Shown here one piece after another: positions 18,897 through 26,050 of a DNA stretch of 64,000 nucleotides (the first letter of the stretch is position 1; the number at the start of each line of letters is the position of its first letter). This DNA is from Brevibacillus laterosporus (GTDB lineage: Bacteria; Bacillota; Bacilli; Brevibacillales; Brevibacillaceae). A program made the position numbers and the translations under genes. Under the pieces are notes generated by a model, which had not been told where the DNA came from, did no database searches, and saw only the letters and a list, made by a program, of their open reading frames with translations. The stretch lies in NCBI GenBank assembly GCA_007833815.1, contig CP033464.1, positions 3,528,001-3,592,000 of the forward strand, written 5' to 3'.

Positions 18897-19452
18897 GAGT
18901 TTATTTTCTAACATTTATTGTTCTATGACAAATACGATACCGACTTTCACTTGGCGAAAATATCTAACGATGAAATGGATTTTTTTAATCCTAACATCTC
19001 AGGATCGTCAGGATTAAGTGTTGATTCTTAGAGAAGGGAATTTCTTGTATAAAGCTAATTTGAGAGAGATTGTTAATAATATGATCCCAAGGGAGAATCA
19101 TGGTTAAAATTGATTTATTTTAAAATAATTAAAACTTAACCTAACATCCAATGTAAAAGGCCCATTTGTTGAAATTTTTTCCTTTAGGAAAGAACTATAG
19201 CAAATGGGCCTTTTTGGTAACGGAATTTGATGGCAAAAGCCTATATCCCAGCAACAGTACTACACGTTTCAGCGCTTGATATTCCAAAAAGTTGCACATA
19301 CATATGAATATGTGCATTTTTCCGTTACTAGTGAAAATGTGTCGATTTTTTGAAATTGTATGTTATTATTTCGAAAAAGCATATAACTTATTTTGTGATA
19401 AATTCCAATATATGTTAAGTTTTATGGAAATATAAATAGCGAGGTGTTATCG
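18897..19452. other. Intergenic region before the bacteriocin cluster
   Basis: Apart from the hairpin at 19155-19217, this stretch holds no open frame I can support. It is AT-rich and probably contains the promoter of the LuxR-type gene, but no clear -35/-10 pair stands out. Confidence 0.5.
19155..19217. terminator. Long bidirectional terminator-like hairpin
   Basis: AAAAGGCCCATTTG (19155-19168) pairs perfectly with CAAATGGGCCTTTT (19201-19214), with T on one side and A on the other. It insulates the bacteriocin cluster from the gltS side. Confidence 0.75.
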
Positions 19453-20112
19453 TTGCAACAACATTCAAAGATGCCGGTAGTGACAATAAACCATTTGCTC
19501 GTTTATGTTAAAGAAGAAATTCATTTTGTCCAGCCTTTTTTTCATAATCCTCATTTTTTCATTGTAACAAATAAGGATGCACAAAGCGTAGATTTCATGT
19601 GCTCACATGGTGAGATGAGAAATGATGATTCTTTCGAGAAAAAAATGATAGCGCTCTCAATGAAGACGATCCAAGAAGCAACCTTTACAAAAGCTCCTGC
19701 TATTCGTTATGGAGAAGAAATGTATCCAAAATCACTGCAGGGATGGATCAGTCTAGGAAGTCCTGTGTATATAAATAATAAAAAAAAGGGGTATGTTAGC
19801 TTGAACTATCAGTCAGAAGAGCATATTTCCTACATAGTAAATATTTTTTGCTACATCATAAAAACAGTGGAAAGGCGATTAAATAATGCCGGACCTTCCC
19901 ACAAGGAGCAGGAATTGAAGAAGAAATTCAAAGACTTACAGCTAACCAAGAAAGAGTGTGAGATTGCCTATTGTCTTCTTGAAAATATCTCTATCAAAGA
20001 TATTTCAAAACATCATTTTATTTCGGTAGAGACAGTTCGAACACACGTGAAAAATATCTACAACAAAGTTGGTGTAAACAACAGAGTAGACTTAATTAGA
20101 ACGTTTGTATAA
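19453..20112 (+). CDS. LuxR-type regulator of bacteriocin cluster
   Basis: A 219-residue regulator. The C-terminal 65 residues are a LuxR helix-turn-helix (QLTKKECEIAYCLLENISIKD, quoted in part as LTKKECEIAYCLL; ISVETVRTHVKNIYNKVGVNNR). The N-terminal 140 residues look like a GAF-type sensor with an ISLGSPVYINNKKKGYVSLN strand set; I see no receiver or membrane domain. Start: TTG 19453, six bases after GAGGTG (19441-19446); the GTG at 19444 is inside that site. It ends 258 bases before the laterosporulin-like gene, same strand, so it is the obvious candidate activator. The signal is unknown. Confidence 0.82.
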   Translation: MQQHSKMPVVTINHLLVYVKEEIHFVQPFFHNPHFFIVTNKDAQSVDFMCSHGEMRNDDSFEKKMIALSMKTIQEATFTKAPAIRYGEEMYPKSLQGWISLGSPVYINNKKKGYVSLNYQSEEHISYIVNIFCYIIKTVERRLNNAGPSHKEQELKKKFKDLQLTKKECEIAYCLLENISIKDISKHHFISVETVRTHVKNIYNKVGVNNRVDLIRTFV

Positions 20113-20185
20113 CGATACTTACAAAAATCCCCCGTAAAGGTGATTTTAATTATTTGTGAATAGAATATAATAAAAATTGTAAAAG

Positions 20186-20223
20186 TTACCATTTGAAAAT
20201 AAATGATATTTTTATCATGGTAA
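20186..20223. promoter_or_regulatory. Nested palindrome upstream of bacteriocin gene
   Basis: TTACCAT (20186-20192) is repeated inverted as ATGGTAA (20217-20223), and inside it ATGATA-TTTT-TATCAT (20203-20218) forms a second palindrome. It lies 150 bases before the peptide gene and is a candidate operator for the LuxR-type protein. A role as a terminator of the regulator gene is less likely because no T tract follows. Confidence 0.4.
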
Positions 20224-20370
20224 TCTAAAATGGTGATTTTTTCAAAGTGGTTCGAGGGTTTTTATATCTCTAGCGCGTTCTTCCATGGAATAGAGTGTAA
20301 TCCCGAGCACCACAGTTGAAATGTAAGTTAACTTAAAAAATTTTAAACATGTGAATGGAGGATGAAAGGT

Positions 20371-20529
20371 ATGGGATGCCAATATGAATGTCCAGATGCA
20401 GTTAAAAATTGGGCTTATCAAGATTATCAGTGTCACCCAGTAGAGAAAAAATATTATAGACATGTTTATGCTGTGTGCATGAATGGTCTTAATGTGTATT
20501 GCAAAACAGAGTGGAGCACCAAGTGTTAG
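20371..20529 (+). CDS. Laterosporulin-like bacteriocin (defensin-like, leaderless)
   Basis: A 52-residue frame too short for most gene callers. It has six cysteines (positions 3, 7, 21, 36, 44, 52) and the blocks CPDA, DYQCH, KKYYRHVYAVCMNG, VYCKTEW. From memory these match laterosporulin and laterosporulin10 of Brevibacillus laterosporus, class IId bacteriocins with a defensin-like fold held by three disulfides. There is no leader peptide: the first Cys is residue 3, so only Met would be removed. GGAGG lies nine bases upstream. The hairpin at 20561-20590 and the redox and export genes that follow support a dedicated production operon. The sequence differs from both remembered homologues at many positions, so it looks like a new variant. 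Confidence 0.9.
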   Translation: MGCQYECPDAVKNWAYQDYQCHPVEKKYYRHVYAVCMNGLNVYCKTEWSTKC

Positions 20530-20560
20530 AATAAACACATAGATTAGGATAAAAAGGGAA

Positions 20561-20590
20561 GGAACACTCTATACCAATATAGAGTGTTCC
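20561..20590 (+). terminator. Perfect 13-bp hairpin after bacteriocin gene
   Basis: GGAACACTCTATA (20561-20573) pairs perfectly with TATAGAGTGTTCC (20578-20590) around CCAA, followed by only a weak T run (TAGTCCTTTA). It probably works as a partial terminator or mRNA stabiliser, giving more peptide message than message for the export and folding genes. Confidence 0.7.
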
Positions 20591-20620
20591 TAGTCCTTTA
20601 TCTGAAGTGGAGGGTTAATA

Positions 20621-21106
20621 ATGGGGACAGACAATCATAAAAAGTTTCTTAAAAACCCAGATCGTTTTTTTGAAAAGATCGGTAGTTCTTTTCCAGAAGA
20701 AATGAATCTAATGAAAGATGGATCATCCGTAGACTTTACATGGGTTCGTAAGGAAGCTTGTGGAACAATTATCTACATAATGAGTGAATCATGCAAATTT
20801 TGTAGATATGATGCCATAAAAGAGTTCGCTGACAAATACAATAAATTTTCTTATATGATTTTCTTATATGGTTCAGAGGAATATAAGGAACAGATAAGAG
20901 AAGAGTATGGGATTTCATTTCCGATCGAGTTAACGGATCTGAAAGAAATAGGAGAAAAACTATTTATAGAGTTGGTTCCCACTATGATTGCTATGAATCG
21001 TGTAGGTCAAATTATCACTTGCGGTAGTTTTCGTAATGAAGTAGAGTCGCTTGAAATGAGAATGGAACCGTTTCTTCAAGTTTATTACTCCTTGGAGAGT
21101 TGTTAA
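20621..21106 (+). CDS. Thioredoxin-like protein, bacteriocin cluster
   Basis: A 161-residue thioredoxin-fold protein without a signal peptide or membrane helix. The redox motif CKFC sits in IIYIMSESCKFCRYDA, and the conserved cis-proline region reads ELVPTMIAMNRVGQII. Start ATG 20621 follows GGAGGG by six bases. It is the first gene after the bacteriocin and its end touches the exporter gene. With two further thioredoxin-fold proteins and a MauE-like protein it probably handles the cysteines of the peptide before or during export, as oxidant, isomerase or reductant. Which of these roles it has cannot be read from sequence. Confidence 0.8.
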   Translation: MGTDNHKKFLKNPDRFFEKIGSSFPEEMNLMKDGSSVDFTWVRKEACGTIIYIMSESCKFCRYDAIKEFADKYNKFSYMIFLYGSEEYKEQIREEYGISFPIELTDLKEIGEKLFIELVPTMIAMNRVGQIITCGSFRNEVESLEMRMEPFLQVYYSLESC

Positions 21107-21108
21107 AA

Positions 21109-22959
21109 ATGAATGTGAATGACAGAGACTCTGTAAATAAAACGAGCAAGAAAGAGAGCTTGGGATTTTTTCAGAGCATGCAACATAGAAAAAGCCTGAT
21201 GCTGTATGCATGCAAAATCGTTTGGAATTTTAATAAAACCTATATGCTTTTGGTCGTTTCCTTAAGTATAATTCTTGCTCTTCAATCAAACGCAATCATT
21301 ATCGTGAACAAATATACAATTAACAATCTTATAAGTTCGCAAGTATACCTTGCACTACTTGGAATTGGAATGATGCTCTTCCTAGAACTGCTTCAGGAGG
21401 GCTTTGAACTTTTCCTGCGATTCTATAATACAAAATGTGATGAACAATTTTCCATTTATAGGGAACAAATACTATTTAACAAGCTGGCAAGTATGGGTTT
21501 ATTAGAACGTGAGCATCCCAGCTTTTTAGGAAAGCTACAGATATGGTCACTTGGATTGATGAAAATACAAGCCACTTTTCAAACAGGGGTACAATGTGTA
21601 AAGGCGTTACTTACAGGCGTACTTTCCATTTATGTGTTGGTTAGTGGTTATTGGCTCATAGGTGTTATTATCATTTTGTTTTCACTTGCCAAAAGCGTAT
21701 TTGTGTTTAAGGTTATCGATCCACTTGTAACGATGAATATGCAGATGGCTCGCGCCCATAACCTCACTACATACTTTAGAGATCTACTAGTAAAAAAAGA
21801 GGCACAAAAGGAATTTCTCCTCATGCAAGCTTTCTCCTTTTTTAAAGATAAATGGCTACGATCGAAAACAAACATCATGAACATGAACATAGATATTACG
21901 AAATTAAATGTAAGACCAGAACTGATAAGTAGTCTGTTATCGATGTGTAGCAGATTAATTATTATGATTATGATGGTCTTTCTTGTTATTGATAAGAAGA
22001 TGACCATTGGGGATTTCATTGCGGTATCTTTGGCTGCCTCCTTGGCAGAAAGAAATATCCTGTCTCTGTTCTTACAATGCAAAAATCTACTAGAGAACCT
22101 GCGCTACGTAGAGGAATATGAGAAGATGGACTCTACCACTCAAAGCGTAGAGGATAAACAAGTGGCAACAACAGACTTTCAACTAAAGCAAGGTATAGAG
22201 GTAGTGGATTTAACCTTCACTTATCCAAATAGGCTAGTACCAGCTCTTCATAACATCAATCTCTCTATAAAAAAAGGAGAGAAGATTGCTATTATCGGGG
22301 ATAACGCAGCTGGAAAATCAACGCTGATCAAACTATTGCTAGCCTTATATCATGCTCCAGATAACACGATTTTTTATGATGGTGTGGAACAAAAACAGAT
22401 AGATGTTGCTGGCTTATGGAAAAGGTGCGGAGCTATCTTTCAGGATTTTATGAAGTACAAGATATCTATCCATGAAAATATCTGCTTGGAAAATGAAAAG
22501 AAAGATGATCAGGAGTTATATCATCTTCTCGAACATCTGAATATACAAGATTTTTATCAGTTAGAAAATGGTCTTTCTACCATGATTGGTGATATCCATG
22601 AGGATTCGGTGGATTTGTCAGGTGGCCAATGGCAAAGAATTGCACTAGCTCGACTATTATATCGTAATCTGGATTTTATAGTTTTAGATGAACCGACTTC
22701 CGCCCTAGATCCGAACAGTGAAGTGAAAGTATTTGACGATATCCTAGACTTAGCTAAAGATAAAACACTCATCGTCATTTCCCATCGAATTGGAATCGGA
22801 AAAAAGGTAGATCGTATCTATTATATGCGGCAAGGAAGTATTATCGAGCAAGGGAGTCATCAGCAATTGATGGATGCAAAAGGTGAATATTTTCAGACAT
22901 GGGAACGCCAAAGCGAGTGGTATAATTCAGAATTAGTTTACGAAAGTAGGGGGTCATAA
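21109..22959 (+). CDS. ABC exporter (bacteriocin transport), no peptidase domain
   Basis: A 616-residue half-transporter: about six membrane helices (residues 30-310), then an ATPase domain with Walker A GDNAAGKST, signature LSGGQWQRIALARL, Walker B FIVLDEPTSALD and the switch His in VISHR. It lacks the N-terminal C39 peptidase that cuts double-glycine leaders, which agrees with a leaderless peptide. ATG 21109 is preferred over TTG 21100, which is too near the GGAG site. It follows the first thioredoxin gene by two bases and precedes the second by four. Export of the laterosporulin-like peptide, and perhaps immunity, is the likely job. Confidence 0.88.
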   Translation: MNVNDRDSVNKTSKKESLGFFQSMQHRKSLMLYACKIVWNFNKTYMLLVVSLSIILALQSNAIIIVNKYTINNLISSQVYLALLGIGMMLFLELLQEGFELFLRFYNTKCDEQFSIYREQILFNKLASMGLLEREHPSFLGKLQIWSLGLMKIQATFQTGVQCVKALLTGVLSIYVLVSGYWLIGVIIILFSLAKSVFVFKVIDPLVTMNMQMARAHNLTTYFRDLLVKKEAQKEFLLMQAFSFFKDKWLRSKTNIMNMNIDITKLNVRPELISSLLSMCSRLIIMIMMVFLVIDKKMTIGDFIAVSLAASLAERNILSLFLQCKNLLENLRYVEEYEKMDSTTQSVEDKQVATTDFQLKQGIEVVDLTFTYPNRLVPALHNINLSIKKGEKIAIIGDNAAGKSTLIKLLLALYHAPDNTIFYDGVEQKQIDVAGLWKRCGAIFQDFMKYKISIHENICLENEKKDDQELYHLLEHLNIQDFYQLENGLSTMIGDIHEDSVDLSGGQWQRIALARLLYRNLDFIVLDEPTSALDPNSEVKVFDDILDLAKDKTLIVISHRIGIGKKVDRIYYMRQGSIIEQGSHQQLMDAKGEYFQTWERQSEWYNSELVYESRGS

Positions 22960-22963
22960 TACG

Positions 22964-23398
22964 ATGTCTAAAAAACTAGTTCGTGATACTGGTTTAGAAA
23001 TAGGCACAAAGATTCCACAGATTCATTTCACAAATTGGGATTCGTCACAGGTAGAGTTGAATTTTTTACCTAAGGGAGCAGCATTGGTTTTTGTCTCTGT
23101 TTTTTGTTCCTATTGTATTGATTTGCTACCTCACCTTCGATCAATAAGTCAGTGTGAGGATATGCAACTCTACCTTTTTTCAGACGGAGAAATAGAGGAT
23201 CATGCTGAAATGGCTGATTATTTTGAGTGGGAATTCCCGGTTATTCAACTCAAACATAAAGAAATGAGCGAAATCTTTGAGATTACCTATCACCCGTTTC
23301 TTCTTGTTACCGATTCTCAGGGTGTGATTATTAGCAAAGGGGATATATATCATGTGGAGGATTTTCGTAAAATAGTAGAAAGTGCTTTATTACCATGA
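22964..23398 (+). CDS. TlpA/peroxiredoxin-like thioredoxin-fold protein
   Basis: A 144-residue thioredoxin-fold protein. The redox motif CSYC lies in VFVSVFCSYCIDLLPHL, the cis-proline in EITYHPFLLVTD, both typical of TlpA/ResA relatives. There is no signal peptide or membrane anchor, which is unusual for TlpA proteins and suggests action on the cytoplasmic side or with the membrane partner encoded next (the two genes overlap by four bases, ATGA). It is the second redox protein of the bacteriocin cluster. Confidence 0.8.
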   Translation: MSKKLVRDTGLEIGTKIPQIHFTNWDSSQVELNFLPKGAALVFVSVFCSYCIDLLPHLRSISQCEDMQLYLFSDGEIEDHAEMADYFEWEFPVIQLKHKEMSEIFEITYHPFLLVTDSQGVIISKGDIYHVEDFRKIVESALLP

Positions 23399-23931
23399 TG
23401 TTGTATCTTCTCTTGCTCCCGTATGGTTTTTCGTTCCTCTTTTTTGTTTCGGCTGTTACGAAGTGCCTTTCTTTGTTTGATTTTAAGCAGGCTATTGTAC
23501 ACTTTGATGTAATATCCAGAAAATATGTAGCAATCACTTCCTATCTGGTTATTATCATGGAATTAGCTCTGGCGGTTTGTTTTTCTCAATTAGTATTTTT
23601 ACATGCCGCTTTTATTCTGACTTCCTTGGTGATGATATTTTTTATTGCGTTGTTTGTGAGAGCTATTAAGCAGAAAAAGAATTTTGCATGTAGCTGTTTT
23701 GGAGTCAGTACGAACAAGACAAACATGAAGCTGGCAATCTTTCGTAATAGTATCCTGTTAGTAGGAGCTATATGGGGAATATGTATTGCCAATCATGTAG
23801 AGACGTTACCATATGCCCAAGAACATATCATGTTTTATCTTATCTCAGTAGCTTTTCTCATACATGTCTATAAGGAATTACATATTTTGCATAACATACA
23901 AAAGAAAATAAGGATGATTGTACCATGGTAA
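23395..23931 (+). CDS. MauE/DoxX-like redox membrane protein
   Basis: A 178-residue protein with four predicted membrane helices and a MauE-type look: FVSAVTKCLSLFDF at the N-terminus and the cysteine pair FACSCFGV in the loop after helix three. MauE partners with MauD-type thioredoxins in disulfide handling of exported proteins in methylamine dehydrogenase systems and in some RiPP and bacteriocin clusters. Here it overlaps a TlpA-like gene before it and a membrane-anchored thioredoxin-fold gene after it (by 7 bases), so the three probably form one redox relay across the membrane. Confidence 0.8.
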   Translation: MMLYLLLLPYGFSFLFFVSAVTKCLSLFDFKQAIVHFDVISRKYVAITSYLVIIMELALAVCFSQLVFLHAAFILTSLVMIFFIALFVRAIKQKKNFACSCFGVSTNKTNMKLAIFRNSILLVGAIWGICIANHVETLPYAQEHIMFYLISVAFLIHVYKELHILHNIQKKIRMIVPW

Positions 23932-24341
23932 ATTTCATGCTCAGTCTTTGGGGCATCATACTTGTTTTTATCATAGGAATGAGGATTATAAAATCTTTTT
24001 ATTATAAAAATTATCTACAAATCTATGTGTCTGATAGTGAGGAGATAACGGAATTACATGATAAAAGTGTCTTTTTGTTTTTGTCTTATACTGATCCTAG
24101 TAACGCTGAATATCTTAGTGAAATGAACCGTCGCTTGCCCGAGTATCAGGTTTACGTCATCTATAAGGCACCTGAATGGAAAGCAAGGGTATTTTCACGC
24201 CAAGTAAACGAACAAACGAAGCTACGAGTTGATGAACAAGGGATAATATCTGATGATTTAGGTATTTCTGCCTTTCCCGCTTACCTTACCTATCATGCGA
24301 TTTTTAAAAAAATATGGATAGTACGTTTTCACATGTATTAA
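23925..24341 (+). CDS. Membrane-anchored thioredoxin-fold protein lacking CxxC
   Basis: A 138-residue protein with one N-terminal membrane helix (residues 4-22) and a thioredoxin-like domain: SVFLFLSYTDPSNAEYLSEM stands where the CxxC strand and helix should be, and LGISAFPAYLTY carries the cis-proline. The two redox cysteines are missing, and I see no cysteine anywhere in it. It may be a MauD-like partner reduced to a binding role, a chaperone or an immunity factor. It overlaps the MauE-like gene and ends 26 bases before the last gene of the cluster. Confidence 0.7.
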   Translation: MVNFMLSLWGIILVFIIGMRIIKSFYYKNYLQIYVSDSEEITELHDKSVFLFLSYTDPSNAEYLSEMNRRLPEYQVYVIYKAPEWKARVFSRQVNEQTKLRVDEQGIISDDLGISAFPAYLTYHAIFKKIWIVRFHMY

Positions 24342-24367
24342 GATAAAATGCGAGGTGTTACCAGGAC

Positions 24368-24754
24368 ATGAATAGTCAATTACTAGTCGTAGATAAAGCC
24401 ACTTTTAGAAAAGAACATAAAAAACATATAGTAGGGCATATCATAAATGAAATTACAGTTCCAGCACTACCTTATGTGCATACATTTCATATGTTCATTG
24501 CTTTGAAAGAGCTACCTGATCAGGCAACTTTTGAACTTCAACTAAAAATAAAAGATCGTAATGGAAAAGATGTTGGAATTTCGAGTCCCGTAACGATGTA
24601 TCATGAGCGCAAAGAAGACCAATCTTCAGCAATGGAAACATCTTTAAACATGTCTATGGTACTTAGTCTAGAAGGGACGTATACAGCTGAGCTATACTAT
24701 GATGGAGAAGTGGCAACGACTTATCCAGTAAAGGTACGTATGGAACATATGTAG
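24368..24754 (+). CDS. DUF6941-like beta protein, end of bacteriocin cluster
   Basis: A 128-residue soluble protein with alternating strands and phrases such as ITVPALPYVHTFHMFIAL and LQLKIKDRNGKDVG that recall the DUF6941 family; this is a tentative assignment. It has no signal peptide, membrane helix or cysteine. It is the last gene before the terminator at 24813, 26 bases after the preceding gene, so it belongs to the operon. Immunity or regulation are possible, but nothing in the sequence proves either. Confidence 0.6.
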   Translation: MNSQLLVVDKATFRKEHKKHIVGHIINEITVPALPYVHTFHMFIALKELPDQATFELQLKIKDRNGKDVGISSPVTMYHERKEDQSSAMETSLNMSMVLSLEGTYTAELYYDGEVATTYPVKVRMEHM

Positions 24755-24845: not shown

Positions 24846-25258
24846 TGAAAAAAACTTTTGAAACGAAAGCAGCTTTAGAATCTGGGTGATACCAAGGATT
24901 TTGTGGCATCGTGTCATGTAATCGTATCGCGAACAAACGTCTATGCGGCACTGCGATCTTTATGGGATATTACTAATTCCTAGTACACGTATTGGAGACT
25001 GGCTAGAAACAAACGTTAAATGGGATTGGAAATGTCCATAACGCTTGGTAAATGAAATGACATACACTCTTCCGCTACAAGTCAAGCTAAGTTGTCGAGT
25101 ACTTAAAAATAAAAAATCATGAGTAGAAGGAACAAAGAATAGTTATTATGATAACTTTCTTGCTTCCGATTAGTAGCGTGTTTGTGGTGAAGAATGCTGG
25201 AATATCAAACCTATTTTGTTGCAAAAAAGGTTTATTAATGGTAAAGGAGAGATGTGTT
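24846..25258. other. Intergenic region, possible decayed DNA
   Basis: No frame with a ribosome site is present. Short stretches look coding-like (for example a frame reading GILLIPSTRIGDWLETN) but are interrupted. The last 60 bases lead into the CPBP protease gene. Confidence 0.4.
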
Positions 25259-26050
25259 ATGGATAAACGCAGGAAGAAAATTTTTCTTTTTTTAACGCTG
25301 ATTGTTTTATTGGGAATTTTTCCATATTATAAAATCATTAGTGCTGGTTTAAAAGGGAATGGATTATATGTTTTCTTACTAATGTGGGTACCTGCCATTT
25401 CAGCGATTACTGTTAAACTTTTGTTTGATAAAAATGTAAAAAATTTAGGTTGGAAATTAGGTGAAGGAAAGTATGTAGTGATATCTTATGGTATTCCATT
25501 AGTTAGTGCTATACTTGTTTATTCAATAGTATGGAAGACAGGAATTGGAGGCATCGATTTTAGTAAGATAAGTATAGTTAACATTTTATCGATTGCTACC
25601 ATAGGTGTTGTGGCCAGTGGAGTGTCAGCTATAGGTGAAGAAATAGGATGGAGAGGTTTTCTTGTACTGGAGTTGTTTAAAAAATTTTCATATACAAAAA
25701 CAGCTATCATAACCGGTGTCATATGGAATATATATCATTACCCTCCTTTGCTTTTCAGTGATTACAATAACGGAATTTCAGTATTATCTTCATTTATTTT
25801 TTTCACAATAAGTATTTTTTCAATAACCTTTATAGCAACATGGCTAAGAATGAAGTCGGGAAGCATGTGGACTGGTATTATCATTCATGCATCTCATAAT
25901 TGCTTTATTCAGGGGTTATTTGATCCTATTACAATTGATAAACAACACACAAAATTATTTACAACGGAATTTGGCATAGGATTAGCGACCGTTTATACGA
26001 TAATAGCATTCTATTTTTGGAAAAGAAGAGATGAACTTTCAAGTGCTTGA
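25259..26050 (+). CDS. CPBP-family intramembrane protease
   Basis: A 263-residue polytopic membrane protein of the CPBP (CAAX protease / bacteriocin-processing) family. The active-site motifs are present: EEIGWRGFL, then the His of WNIYHYPPLLF and the HASHN motif near the C-terminus. ATG 25259 follows AAAGGAGA by eight bases; a longer reading from 25148 has no ribosome site. Members near bacteriocin genes often act in self-immunity. It lies 500 bases beyond the bacteriocin operon terminator, so a link with it is possible but unproven. Confidence 0.85.
   Translation: MDKRRKKIFLFLTLIVLLGIFPYYKIISAGLKGNGLYVFLLMWVPAISAITVKLLFDKNVKNLGWKLGEGKYVVISYGIPLVSAILVYSIVWKTGIGGIDFSKISIVNILSIATIGVVASGVSAIGEEIGWRGFLVLELFKKFSYTKTAIITGVIWNIYHYPPLLFSDYNNGISVLSSFIFFTISIFSITFIATWLRMKSGSMWTGIIIHASHNCFIQGLFDPITIDKQHTKLFTTEFGIGLATVYTIIAFYFWKRRDELSSA

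What the first reader, a model, noticed from the sequence alone, without database searches (positions are those of the whole stretch)
19453..24754. Complete laterosporulin-type bacteriocin cluster with dedicated disulfide machinery
Seen: a 52-residue, six-cysteine gene at 20371 followed by an ABC exporter lacking the leader peptidase, three thioredoxin-fold proteins (CKFC, CSYC, and one without CxxC), a MauE-like protein with a CSC pair, and a DUF6941-like protein, all close-packed up to one terminator. Known: laterosporulins are defensin-like peptides with three disulfides. Inference: this operon is a biosynthetic route for a cytoplasm-made, leaderless, disulfide-stabilised peptide, with its own redox relay on both sides of the membrane. 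I am not aware of a described function for these accessory genes.
Basis: partly seen in the sequence, partly recalled or inferred. Interest (0 to 1): 0.88.

Follow-up and report, generated by a model that had tools for sequence, protein, structure and literature searches.

The report
Redox cassette for leaderless cystine peptides
The genes beside a known bacterial defensin-like antibiotic turn out to be a widespread, largely undescribed set of thiol-handling and export genes that travels with dozens of different short cysteine-rich peptides, which makes it possible to ask how bacteria fold and export such peptides without a signal sequence.

Summary
Window 20371-20529 encodes a laterosporulin, followed by TrxA-like (CKFC), a peptidase-free ABC exporter, TlpA-like (CSYC), MauE (CSCFG), an anchored thioredoxin fold without CxxC, and DUF6941. 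All 4 laterosporulin genomes found (one genus) carry the set in one order; 2 congeners without the peptide lack TrxA and this MauE.

The cassette is wider than laterosporulin. I examined 50 non-redundant loci of Brevibacillus and Paenibacillaceae; strong TrxA hits (E <= 6e-17) lie in 39 of 295 sampled Paenibacillaceae genomes. 42 of 50 loci by filter, 49 of 50 with hand inspection, hold leaderless peptides, mostly M-[AGS]-C with 6-10 cysteines (60 distinct). The nine non-laterosporulin peptides scanned match no Pfam or NCBIfam family above cut-off.

Best reading: a cytoplasm-facing maturation and export line; oxidation versus reduction is untested. MauE beside Cys-rich precursors was noted before in Streptomyces. 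Published expression clones that failed may have lacked the end of tlpA and the three genes after it.

The parts
19444..20112 (+). LuxR/GerE-type regulator (start GTG 19444 or TTG 19453); probable control of the operon
   Evidence: PF00196 50 bits; kept upstream in the 3 other laterosporulin loci at 80-84% identity
20371..20529 (+). Laterosporulin-family peptide, 52 codons, 6 Cys, leaderless; the ATG starts after GGAGG and nine further bases
   Evidence: PF17861 83.2 bits, NF033806 104.7 bits; PDB 6lwy/4ozk/6lwz; alignment A5; sequence
20560..20591 (+). Hairpin after the peptide gene (14 pairs, weak T run): attenuator or mRNA 3' stabiliser
   Evidence: z = -6.1 against dinucleotide shuffles; kept in 4 of 4 laterosporulin loci, one stem pair changed on both sides in L009
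20621..21106 (+). TrxA-like thioredoxin-fold protein, CKFC, no anchor
   Evidence: Profile of 13 relatives finds thioredoxin, ResA and tryparedoxin chains, best E 0.00045; hhalign to TlpA 99.1%; CxxC in 49 of 49 relatives
21109..22959 (+). ABC exporter (TM domain + ATPase) without C39 peptidase
   Evidence: PF00005 97.5 bits, NCBIfam exporter hits, no C39 hit; same in 8 relatives scanned
22964..23398 (+). TlpA/MauD-like protein, CSYC, no membrane anchor
   Evidence: TIGR02661 MauD 43 bits, far below its cut-off; motif CxxC[IV]DLLP in 7 of 7 aligned; no N-terminal TM in 48
23395..23931 (+). MauE-family membrane protein, CSCFG
   Evidence: PF07291 75.3 bits; CxC motif with FG or the like in 40 of 40 relatives
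23925..24341 (+). Membrane-anchored thioredoxin-fold protein without CxxC ('Trx3')
   Evidence: AlphaFold + Foldseek; hhalign to TrxA 61.6%
24368..24754 (+). DUF6941 protein; role unknown (adaptor or immunity candidate)
   Evidence: PF22091 51.1 bits
24811..24840 (+). Terminator-like site that ends the operon

Best explanation
The operon is one member of a conserved cassette that matures and exports leaderless, cystine-rich bacteriocin-like peptides from the cytoplasmic side. Proposed steps: the peptide is translated without a leader and loses only its Met (inferred; Ala was the first residue of purified laterosporulin in PMC3293901). Two soluble CxxC proteins, TrxA and TlpA, act on its thiols in the cytoplasm (inferred). 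MauE, with its CxC loop facing the cytoplasm, recycles TlpA/TrxA through the membrane (inferred by analogy with MauD/MauE). Trx3, a membrane-anchored thioredoxin fold without active cysteines, holds or hands over the folding peptide, perhaps with DUF6941 (inferred). The peptidase-free ABC exporter passes it out (inferred). I think net oxidation before or at export is likeliest. Shown here by computation: gene content, linkage with many peptides, conserved motifs, predicted topology. Not shown: any biochemistry.
For: 4 of 4 laterosporulin genomes carry the full ordered set; the 2 congeners without the peptide have no TrxA and no match to this MauE profile. In 50 non-redundant loci: TrxA 49, TlpA 48, DUF6941 44, ABC 43, MauE 40, Trx3 40; in the 36 loci found with TrxA alone as bait: TlpA 34, DUF6941 30, ABC 29, MauE 27, Trx3 27. 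Leaderless Cys-rich peptides by filter in 42 of 50 loci: 54 peptides in 364 kb of strand, against 3 on the opposite strand of the same 364 kb and 3 in 935 kb outside; by hand also in 7 of the other 8. Of 60 distinct peptides 58 have an even number of Cys, against 31 of 46 control ORFs. CxxC in 49/49 TrxA and 48/48 TlpA, CxC in 40/40 MauE. Cytoplasmic topology. MauE has been speculated to act in disulfide formation of methylamine dehydrogenase (as cited in PMC7794033).
Against: No experiment shows the redox state or direction. DTT did not affect laterosporulin activity (PMC3293901). In the lasso peptide sviceucin the thiol-disulfide oxidoreductase was dispensable for disulfides but mattered for transport, and mslE/mslF knock-outs of MS-271 only lowered yield (PMC9266682). 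The MauE model found no PDB relative, hence no DsbB/VKOR-like fold. MauE and Trx3 were each not found in 10 of 50 loci. Topology rests on hydropathy and K/R counts; a 19-residue hydrophobic segment does occur somewhere in 26 of 48 TlpA and 3 of 49 TrxA, though none lies before the CxxC. Other MauE systems look oriented the same way. No immunity gene is identified.
Confidence: 0.55

Rival explanations
1. Reductive holding: TrxA, TlpA and MauE keep the peptide reduced and unfolded in the cytoplasm so that the ABC exporter can thread it; disulfides form spontaneously outside.
For: All thiol proteins face the cytoplasm by prediction, normally a reducing space (general knowledge); the TrxA profile finds thioredoxin and ResA, which are mostly reductive (recalled), among its PDB relatives; SviF mattered for transport rather than disulfides (PMC9266682).
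Against: A general thioredoxin could do this; MauE has been speculated to form disulfides in methylamine dehydrogenase (as cited in PMC7794033).
Confidence: 0.25
2. One reading: an oxidising relay with components on both sides of the membrane.
For: MauE spans the membrane; DsbA/DsbB pairs work outside (recalled).
Against: No CxxC protein with an N-terminal anchor in the cassette (0 of 49 TrxA, 0 of 48 TlpA); MauE CxC loop on the K/R-rich side in 40 of 40; Trx3 has no CxxC in 37 of 38, and the one CxxC lies in its TM segment.
Confidence: 0.1
3. Part of the cassette (Trx3, DUF6941 or TrxA) is self-immunity rather than maturation, e.g. binding or reducing returning peptide.
For: No other immunity candidate was recognised in the operon; PMC6510442 guessed that the 'hypothetical protein' is immunity.
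Against: TrxA is a CxxC thioredoxin-fold protein; the same protein families occur with very different peptides.
Confidence: 0.2
4. Chance: Cys-rich small ORFs beside generic thiol genes.
For: The peptide filter was defined after seeing the first peptides; small Cys-rich ORFs do occur by chance (6 passed the filter outside or on the opposite strand).
Against: Density 46-fold over the surroundings and 18-fold over the opposite strand (54 to 3); 4 hits in 1400 Markov regions with the earlier form of the filter; tandem copies and Cys parity.
Confidence: 0.02

Closest known systems
Laterosporulin family, class IId bacteriocins (PF17861, NF033806; Brevibacillus GI-9, PMC3293901)
   Same: The peptide of the window is a member; the published 4 kb (regulator, peptide, hypothetical protein, ABC, 'dehydrogenase') fits luxR-lts-trxA-ABC-tlpA here by gene order.
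   Different: The passages I saw of PMC3293901 and PMC6510442 do not mention mauE, trx3 or DUF6941 and give no redox role ('thioredoxin' occurs in neither main text); the other peptides of the cassette are not laterosporulins by profile.
decRiPPter candidate RiPP families with MauE (one with MauD) in Streptomyces (PMC7794033, passages)
   Same: MauE (and MauD) next to precursors with at least 8 Cys; modification role proposed.
   Different: Streptomyces; the passages name no cassette with two CxxC proteins, Trx3, DUF6941 or leaderless M-x-C peptides. I did not see its supplementary tables.
mau cluster MauD/MauE (TIGR02661, PF07291)
   Same: TlpA-like + MauE pair linked to maturation of a disulfide-bearing protein (as cited in PMC7794033).
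   Different: No methylamine dehydrogenase gene in the operon; TlpA here has no membrane anchor and scores below the MauD cut-off.
Sviceucin lasso peptide SviE (DoxX) + SviF (thiol-disulfide oxidoreductase) (PMC9266682, passages)
   Same: Membrane redox partner + CxxC protein + exporter in a peptide cluster.
   Different: Lasso peptide with maturation enzymes of its own; not this gene set.
Sublancin thiol-disulfide oxidoreductases (BdbA/BdbB, names recalled; cited in PMC9266682) and the bactofencin thioredoxin-domain protein (PMC7616364, passages)
   Same: Dedicated thiol proteins with a disulfide bacteriocin.
   Different: Not this cassette; that sublancin and bactofencin precursors have leaders is recalled.
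Actifensin (PMC6989792, passages)
   Same: Defensin-like bacteriocin with three proposed disulfides; ABC and LuxR genes nearby.
   Different: 32-residue leader and protease genes; 'thioredoxin' does not occur in the paper's main text.

Membership tests
Laterosporulin (PF17861 / NF033806) | Profile score over curated cut-off | tested here: met
   83.2 vs 25 and 104.7 vs 40 bits
Laterosporulin (PF17861 / NF033806) | Six conserved cysteines in a leaderless peptide of about 50 residues | tested here: met
   Alignments to 6lwy/4ozk and to three relatives
Laterosporulin (PF17861 / NF033806) | Antibacterial activity with three disulfides | not testable with these tools
   No experiment on this peptide
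Laterosporulin, for the other cassette peptides | Profile match | tested here: not met
   No Pfam/NCBIfam match above cut-off for the 9 scanned of 60 distinct peptides; best E to a 4-sequence laterosporulin profile is 0.0015 in a set of 60
MauE (PF07291) | Profile over cut-off | tested here: met
   75.3 vs 27 bits; also 3 of 3 relatives scanned
MauD (TIGR02661) | Profile over cut-off | tested here: not met
   43.1 vs 188.6 bits
DUF6941 (PF22091) | Profile over cut-off | tested here: met
   51.1 vs 27 bits for the window; 2 of 4 relatives scanned are below it
DsbB/VKOR-type quinone oxidoreductase (for MauE) | Structural match to DsbB or VKOR | tested here: inconclusive
   Foldseek on the MauE model: 28 matches, best E 2.8, none of this kind
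Peptidase-containing (C39) bacteriocin exporter | N-terminal C39 peptidase | tested here: not met
   No C39 hit in window ABC (E <= 0.1) or 8 relatives (E <= 0.01)

The most novel reading that the evidence does not exclude
Brevibacillus and Paenibacillaceae possess a dedicated pathway that makes disulfide bonds in the cytoplasm: soluble CxxC proteins recycled by an inward-facing MauE oxidise leaderless peptides, which a peptidase-free ABC transporter then exports already folded. It defines a large, sequence-diverse and mostly unannotated class of cystine-rich bacteriocins of which laterosporulin is the only characterised member.
Probability: 0.35. Interest if true: 0.88.

Novelty: new variant of a known kind. 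Interest (0 to 1): 0.74.

Why it matters
It gives a genetic handle (one bait profile, TrxA) to a class of peptides that the family libraries searched here do not name, and turns 'how are leaderless bacteriocins folded and exported?' into a set of single-gene tests. It also offers a simple possible reason why laterosporulin could not be made in other hosts: the clones may have lacked the end of tlpA and the three genes after it.

Tried and rejected
Laterosporulin alone as bait: no hits in plasmids or phages. The pattern scan of genome contigs found none, but that scan has little weight: it missed NZ_JAUKFY010000017.1 (B. laterosporus MSSRFCCT15), which matches G005:C9 in length and so holds a laterosporulin. 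Outside the genus there were only weak hits (G146, G268; G621), which I did not settle: L012 and L013 around G146 and G268 were fetched and gave no tblastn match to the operon proteins; G621 was not followed. TrxA and MauE against plasmids gave nothing. Five further genomes with weak TrxA hits (E above 0.002) were not followed. A TlpA profile over 399 genomes is swamped by general ResA/TlpA proteins (142 of 399 at E <= 1e-6); I used its matches down to 9e-50 and G180 (5.7e-14) only. hhalign did not link Trx3 to TlpA (0.2%) and only weakly to TrxA, hence the structure job. MauE as a VKOR/DsbB look-alike: no structural support. CPBP protease 25148-26050 as part of the system: no match in the three relatives' loci. 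Hairpin as true terminator: I think unlikely (weak T run, operon continues). Literature: (10 searches); one search listed 40 of 117 laterosporulin papers, the rest unseen; the listings show no paper that describes this cassette by title or abstract start. Only open-licence PMC papers are held.

Cautions: family HMMs were retrained in three rounds on the loci (Trx3 rose from 21 to 42 members). The peptide filter was defined after seeing the first cases. Six of the 39 Paenibacillaceae genomes with strong hits supplied sequences to the TrxA profile itself. One search stopped on an error at an X residue; one search repeats the count in full. ORF starts are the first possible start and may be too long. 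Two notebook entries are off: the Cys counts for L164/L165 (8 each, not 10 and 9), and the remark that the L009 EcoRI fragment holds a symporter, which I did not check.
Full report
What is there. Window 20371-20529 encodes MGCQYECPDAVKNWAYQDYQCHPVEKKYYRHVYAVCMNGLNVYCKTEWSTKC, a laterosporulin by Pfam and NCBIfam and by match to solved laterosporulins. Nine bases separate GGAGG from the ATG at 20371; the same spacing is seen upstream of the peptide in L009, L010 and L011. Downstream follow TrxA-like (CKFC), ABC exporter, TlpA-like (CSYC), MauE (CSCFG), Trx3 and DUF6941, with overlaps or gaps of -7 to +26 bp, then a terminator-like site. A LuxR-type regulator lies upstream.

The window lies in a near-complete genome (4 contigs) of the B. 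laterosporus group (inferred: G005 of the same genus is B. laterosporus MSSRFCCT15 by the lengths of two contigs).

Laterosporulin is confined to this genus among what I searched: 4 of 60 relatives and 4 of 399 class genomes over the cut-off; one of these four is the window's own genome. In a 299-genome phylum draw only the own genome passed. All four carry the complete eight-gene order; protein identities to the window are 62-89%. G001 and G003, same genus without laterosporulin, have no TrxA match at E <= 0.01 and no match of this MauE profile.

The cassette is not specific to laterosporulin. The TrxA profile found G029 (E 2.4e-29) and G160 (7.8e-7) besides the four (five more genomes had weak hits above E 0.002, not followed), and the MauE profile a second locus in G005. 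All three have the cassette, in part or whole, beside short Cys-rich ORFs that are not laterosporulins. A genome-contig scan with a TlpA alignment (motif CxxC[IV]DLLP) gave 8 loci, 5 of them new: Paenibacillaceae CAVE-418, P. tundrae, P. endophyticus, Paenibacillus sp. OVF10, P. oryzae. Two more came from a TlpA profile over 399 class genomes: a second locus in G004, and G180. A wider TrxA profile then hit 60 of 295 Paenibacillaceae genomes at E <= 1e-6; the weaker hits are probably general thioredoxin-like proteins. Counted by hand from that table, 47 places in 39 genomes have E <= 6e-17; six of these genomes had supplied sequences to the profile. Of the 47 I fetched 40, already had 2, and left 5 unfetched. 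Four of the 40 repeat loci I already had.

The 50 non-redundant loci contain TrxA 49, TlpA 48, DUF6941 44, ABC 43, MauE 40 and Trx3 40; L144 holds only a TrxA fragment, and L143 and some others lack several genes in the stretch fetched. In the 36 found with TrxA as only bait, TlpA is in 34, DUF6941 in 30, ABC in 29, MauE in 27, Trx3 in 27, and all five in 19. Commonest order: peptide(s)-TrxA-ABC-TlpA-MauE-Trx3-DUF6941 (12 of 50 with one or two peptides); other loci shuffle the blocks.

The peptides. A filter (ATG, Cys at residue 2-4, 40-80 aa, at least 6 Cys, Cys in the last two residues) marks 54 peptides in 42 of 50 loci, same strand, within 1.5 kb of the cassette. Three lie on the opposite strand there and three outside, although 2.6 times more strand was searched outside (46-fold density over the outside, 18-fold over the opposite strand). 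The filter was written after the first peptides had been seen, so this is description more than test; an earlier, stricter form marked 13 of 14 loci and gave 4 hits in 1400 Markov regions. Of the 8 loci without a hit, 7 have a similar peptide on inspection of a relaxed list (L117, L122, L127, L130, L136, L143, L145); only L144 has none. The 60 distinct peptides have 8 (42), 6 (10), 10 (6), 7 (1) or 9 (1) Cys; the two odd ones have an internal ATG that would make them even. Control ORFs in the same loci: 31 of 46 even; Fisher p 7e-5, but the peptides are related, so this overstates. Residue 2 is A, G, S or C in 56 of 60, fit for Met removal (general knowledge). Only 1 of 60 has a strongly hydrophobic 12-residue stretch, so no signal peptide is evident. 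Copies are often in tandem: four identical in L111, three related in L035 and L074. None of nine scanned peptides matches NCBIfam or Pfam above cut-off. Homology to laterosporulin is suggested (58 of 60 join in one cluster at phmmer E < 0.01 in this 60-sequence set; some share HVY..C) but not established: Cys composition and the small set inflate such scores.

The machinery. CxxC is in 49 of 49 TrxA and 48 of 48 TlpA, and the CxC motif in 40 of 40 MauE. No TrxA or TlpA has a hydrophobic segment before its CxxC at the level set (0 of 49, 0 of 48); a 19-residue hydrophobic segment further on was scored in 3 and 26 of them, which I take for the strand next to the CxxC. In MauE the side with the CxC loop carries 12.6 K/R on average against 1.7 on the other, more in 40 of 40 (leaving out the CxC loop itself the sign is lost in 5). 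Trx3 has an N-terminal anchor in 37 of 38, with more K/R on its C-terminal side in 37 of 37, which puts its domain inside. So all thiol parts are predicted to face the cytoplasm. A caution: six TlpA/MauD-like neighbours that I looked at of other MauE proteins (CGCGG/CNCGG type; 6 of the 30 loci) do have an anchor, and in 5 of 6 it too has more K/R after it (one tie). The orientation may thus be general for MauE systems, not special to this cassette.

Trx3 looks like a degenerate thioredoxin: its model's first hits are thioredoxin-like, DsbE and CcmG proteins (best E 1.0e-3, so moderate). The MauE model has no credible PDB relative.

Mechanism. I favour a cytoplasmic-side maturation line, with TrxA and TlpA acting on peptide thiols, MauE recycling them, Trx3 and perhaps DUF6941 as holders, and the ABC as exporter. 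Linkage and topology are shown by computation; everything chemical is inference. Oxidation is suggested by the MauE precedent, itself called speculation (as cited in PMC7794033, passages read). Against it, DTT did not affect laterosporulin activity (PMC3293901, passages), and a lasso-peptide oxidoreductase mattered for transport, not for disulfides (PMC9266682, passages). I therefore keep reductive holding as a serious rival.

A published puzzle. PMC6510442 (passages read) subcloned EcoRI fragments of 6738-6750 bp as the entire laterosporulin cluster ('structural gene, hypothetical protein, two transporters, regulator') and got no activity in B. subtilis or L. lactis; it says that the 4-kb fragment of the 2012 authors failed too. 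In the window and in L009 the first EcoRI site downstream of the peptide lies inside tlpA (fragments of 5161 and 6873 bp); in L010 and L011 it is already in trxA. If the published strains resemble the window or L009, their clones lacked the end of tlpA and all of mauE, trx3 and DUF6941. Their genomes were not available to me, and other causes of failure are possible, so this is inference.

Hairpin. A strong hairpin follows the peptide in the window (z -6.1) and in the three relatives (z -5.3 to -7.2); over 52 peptide 3' regions z is below -2 in 32 and not in 20. It may set peptide mRNA above that of the enzymes (inference).

Novelty. The peptide is a known family. MauE with Cys-rich precursors was noted in Streptomyces by decRiPPter (3 families, one with MauD; PMC7794033). 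Within the 10 searches done, I found no description of this cassette, of DUF6941 (0 papers) or of these Paenibacillus peptides. I rate it a new variant of a known kind, with a possible new class behind it.

Noticed in passing
L164 (G001:C9) and L165 (G003:C1): The two congeners without laterosporulin have another MauE (CGCGG/CNCGG) with a membrane-anchored TlpA-like protein next to Cys-rich small ORFs (two with 8 Cys ending LNCNC/LNCSC in L164, with an ABC exporter; 58 aa with 8 Cys in L165): a possible second branch, no TrxA in the 3.4 kb seen.
   Followed up: partly
L035 (G005:C55) and L074 (G004): Two laterosporulin genomes carry a second cassette with three tandem 8-Cys peptides ending SGCC/AGCC.
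   Followed up: partly
L038-L040, L042, L111, L121, L122, L137, L141, L143: ORFs resembling solute-binding lipoproteins sit in 10 of 50 loci by a motif search; possible immunity or uptake role.
   Followed up: no
L034, 10267-14226: In P. xylanexedens two FtsX-like permeases, an ATPase and a NifS-like gene follow the cassette (named by eye from the ORFs).
   Followed up: no
L033, 3839-4078 (-): A 79-aa glutaredoxin-like ORF with CPVC (named by eye) follows DUF6941.
   Followed up: no
window 20560-20591: Strong hairpin between the peptide and trxA, also seen after many other cassette peptides.
   Followed up: partly
window 25148-26050: CPBP/Rce1-like protease gene just after the operon; no match in the three relatives' loci.
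   Followed up: no
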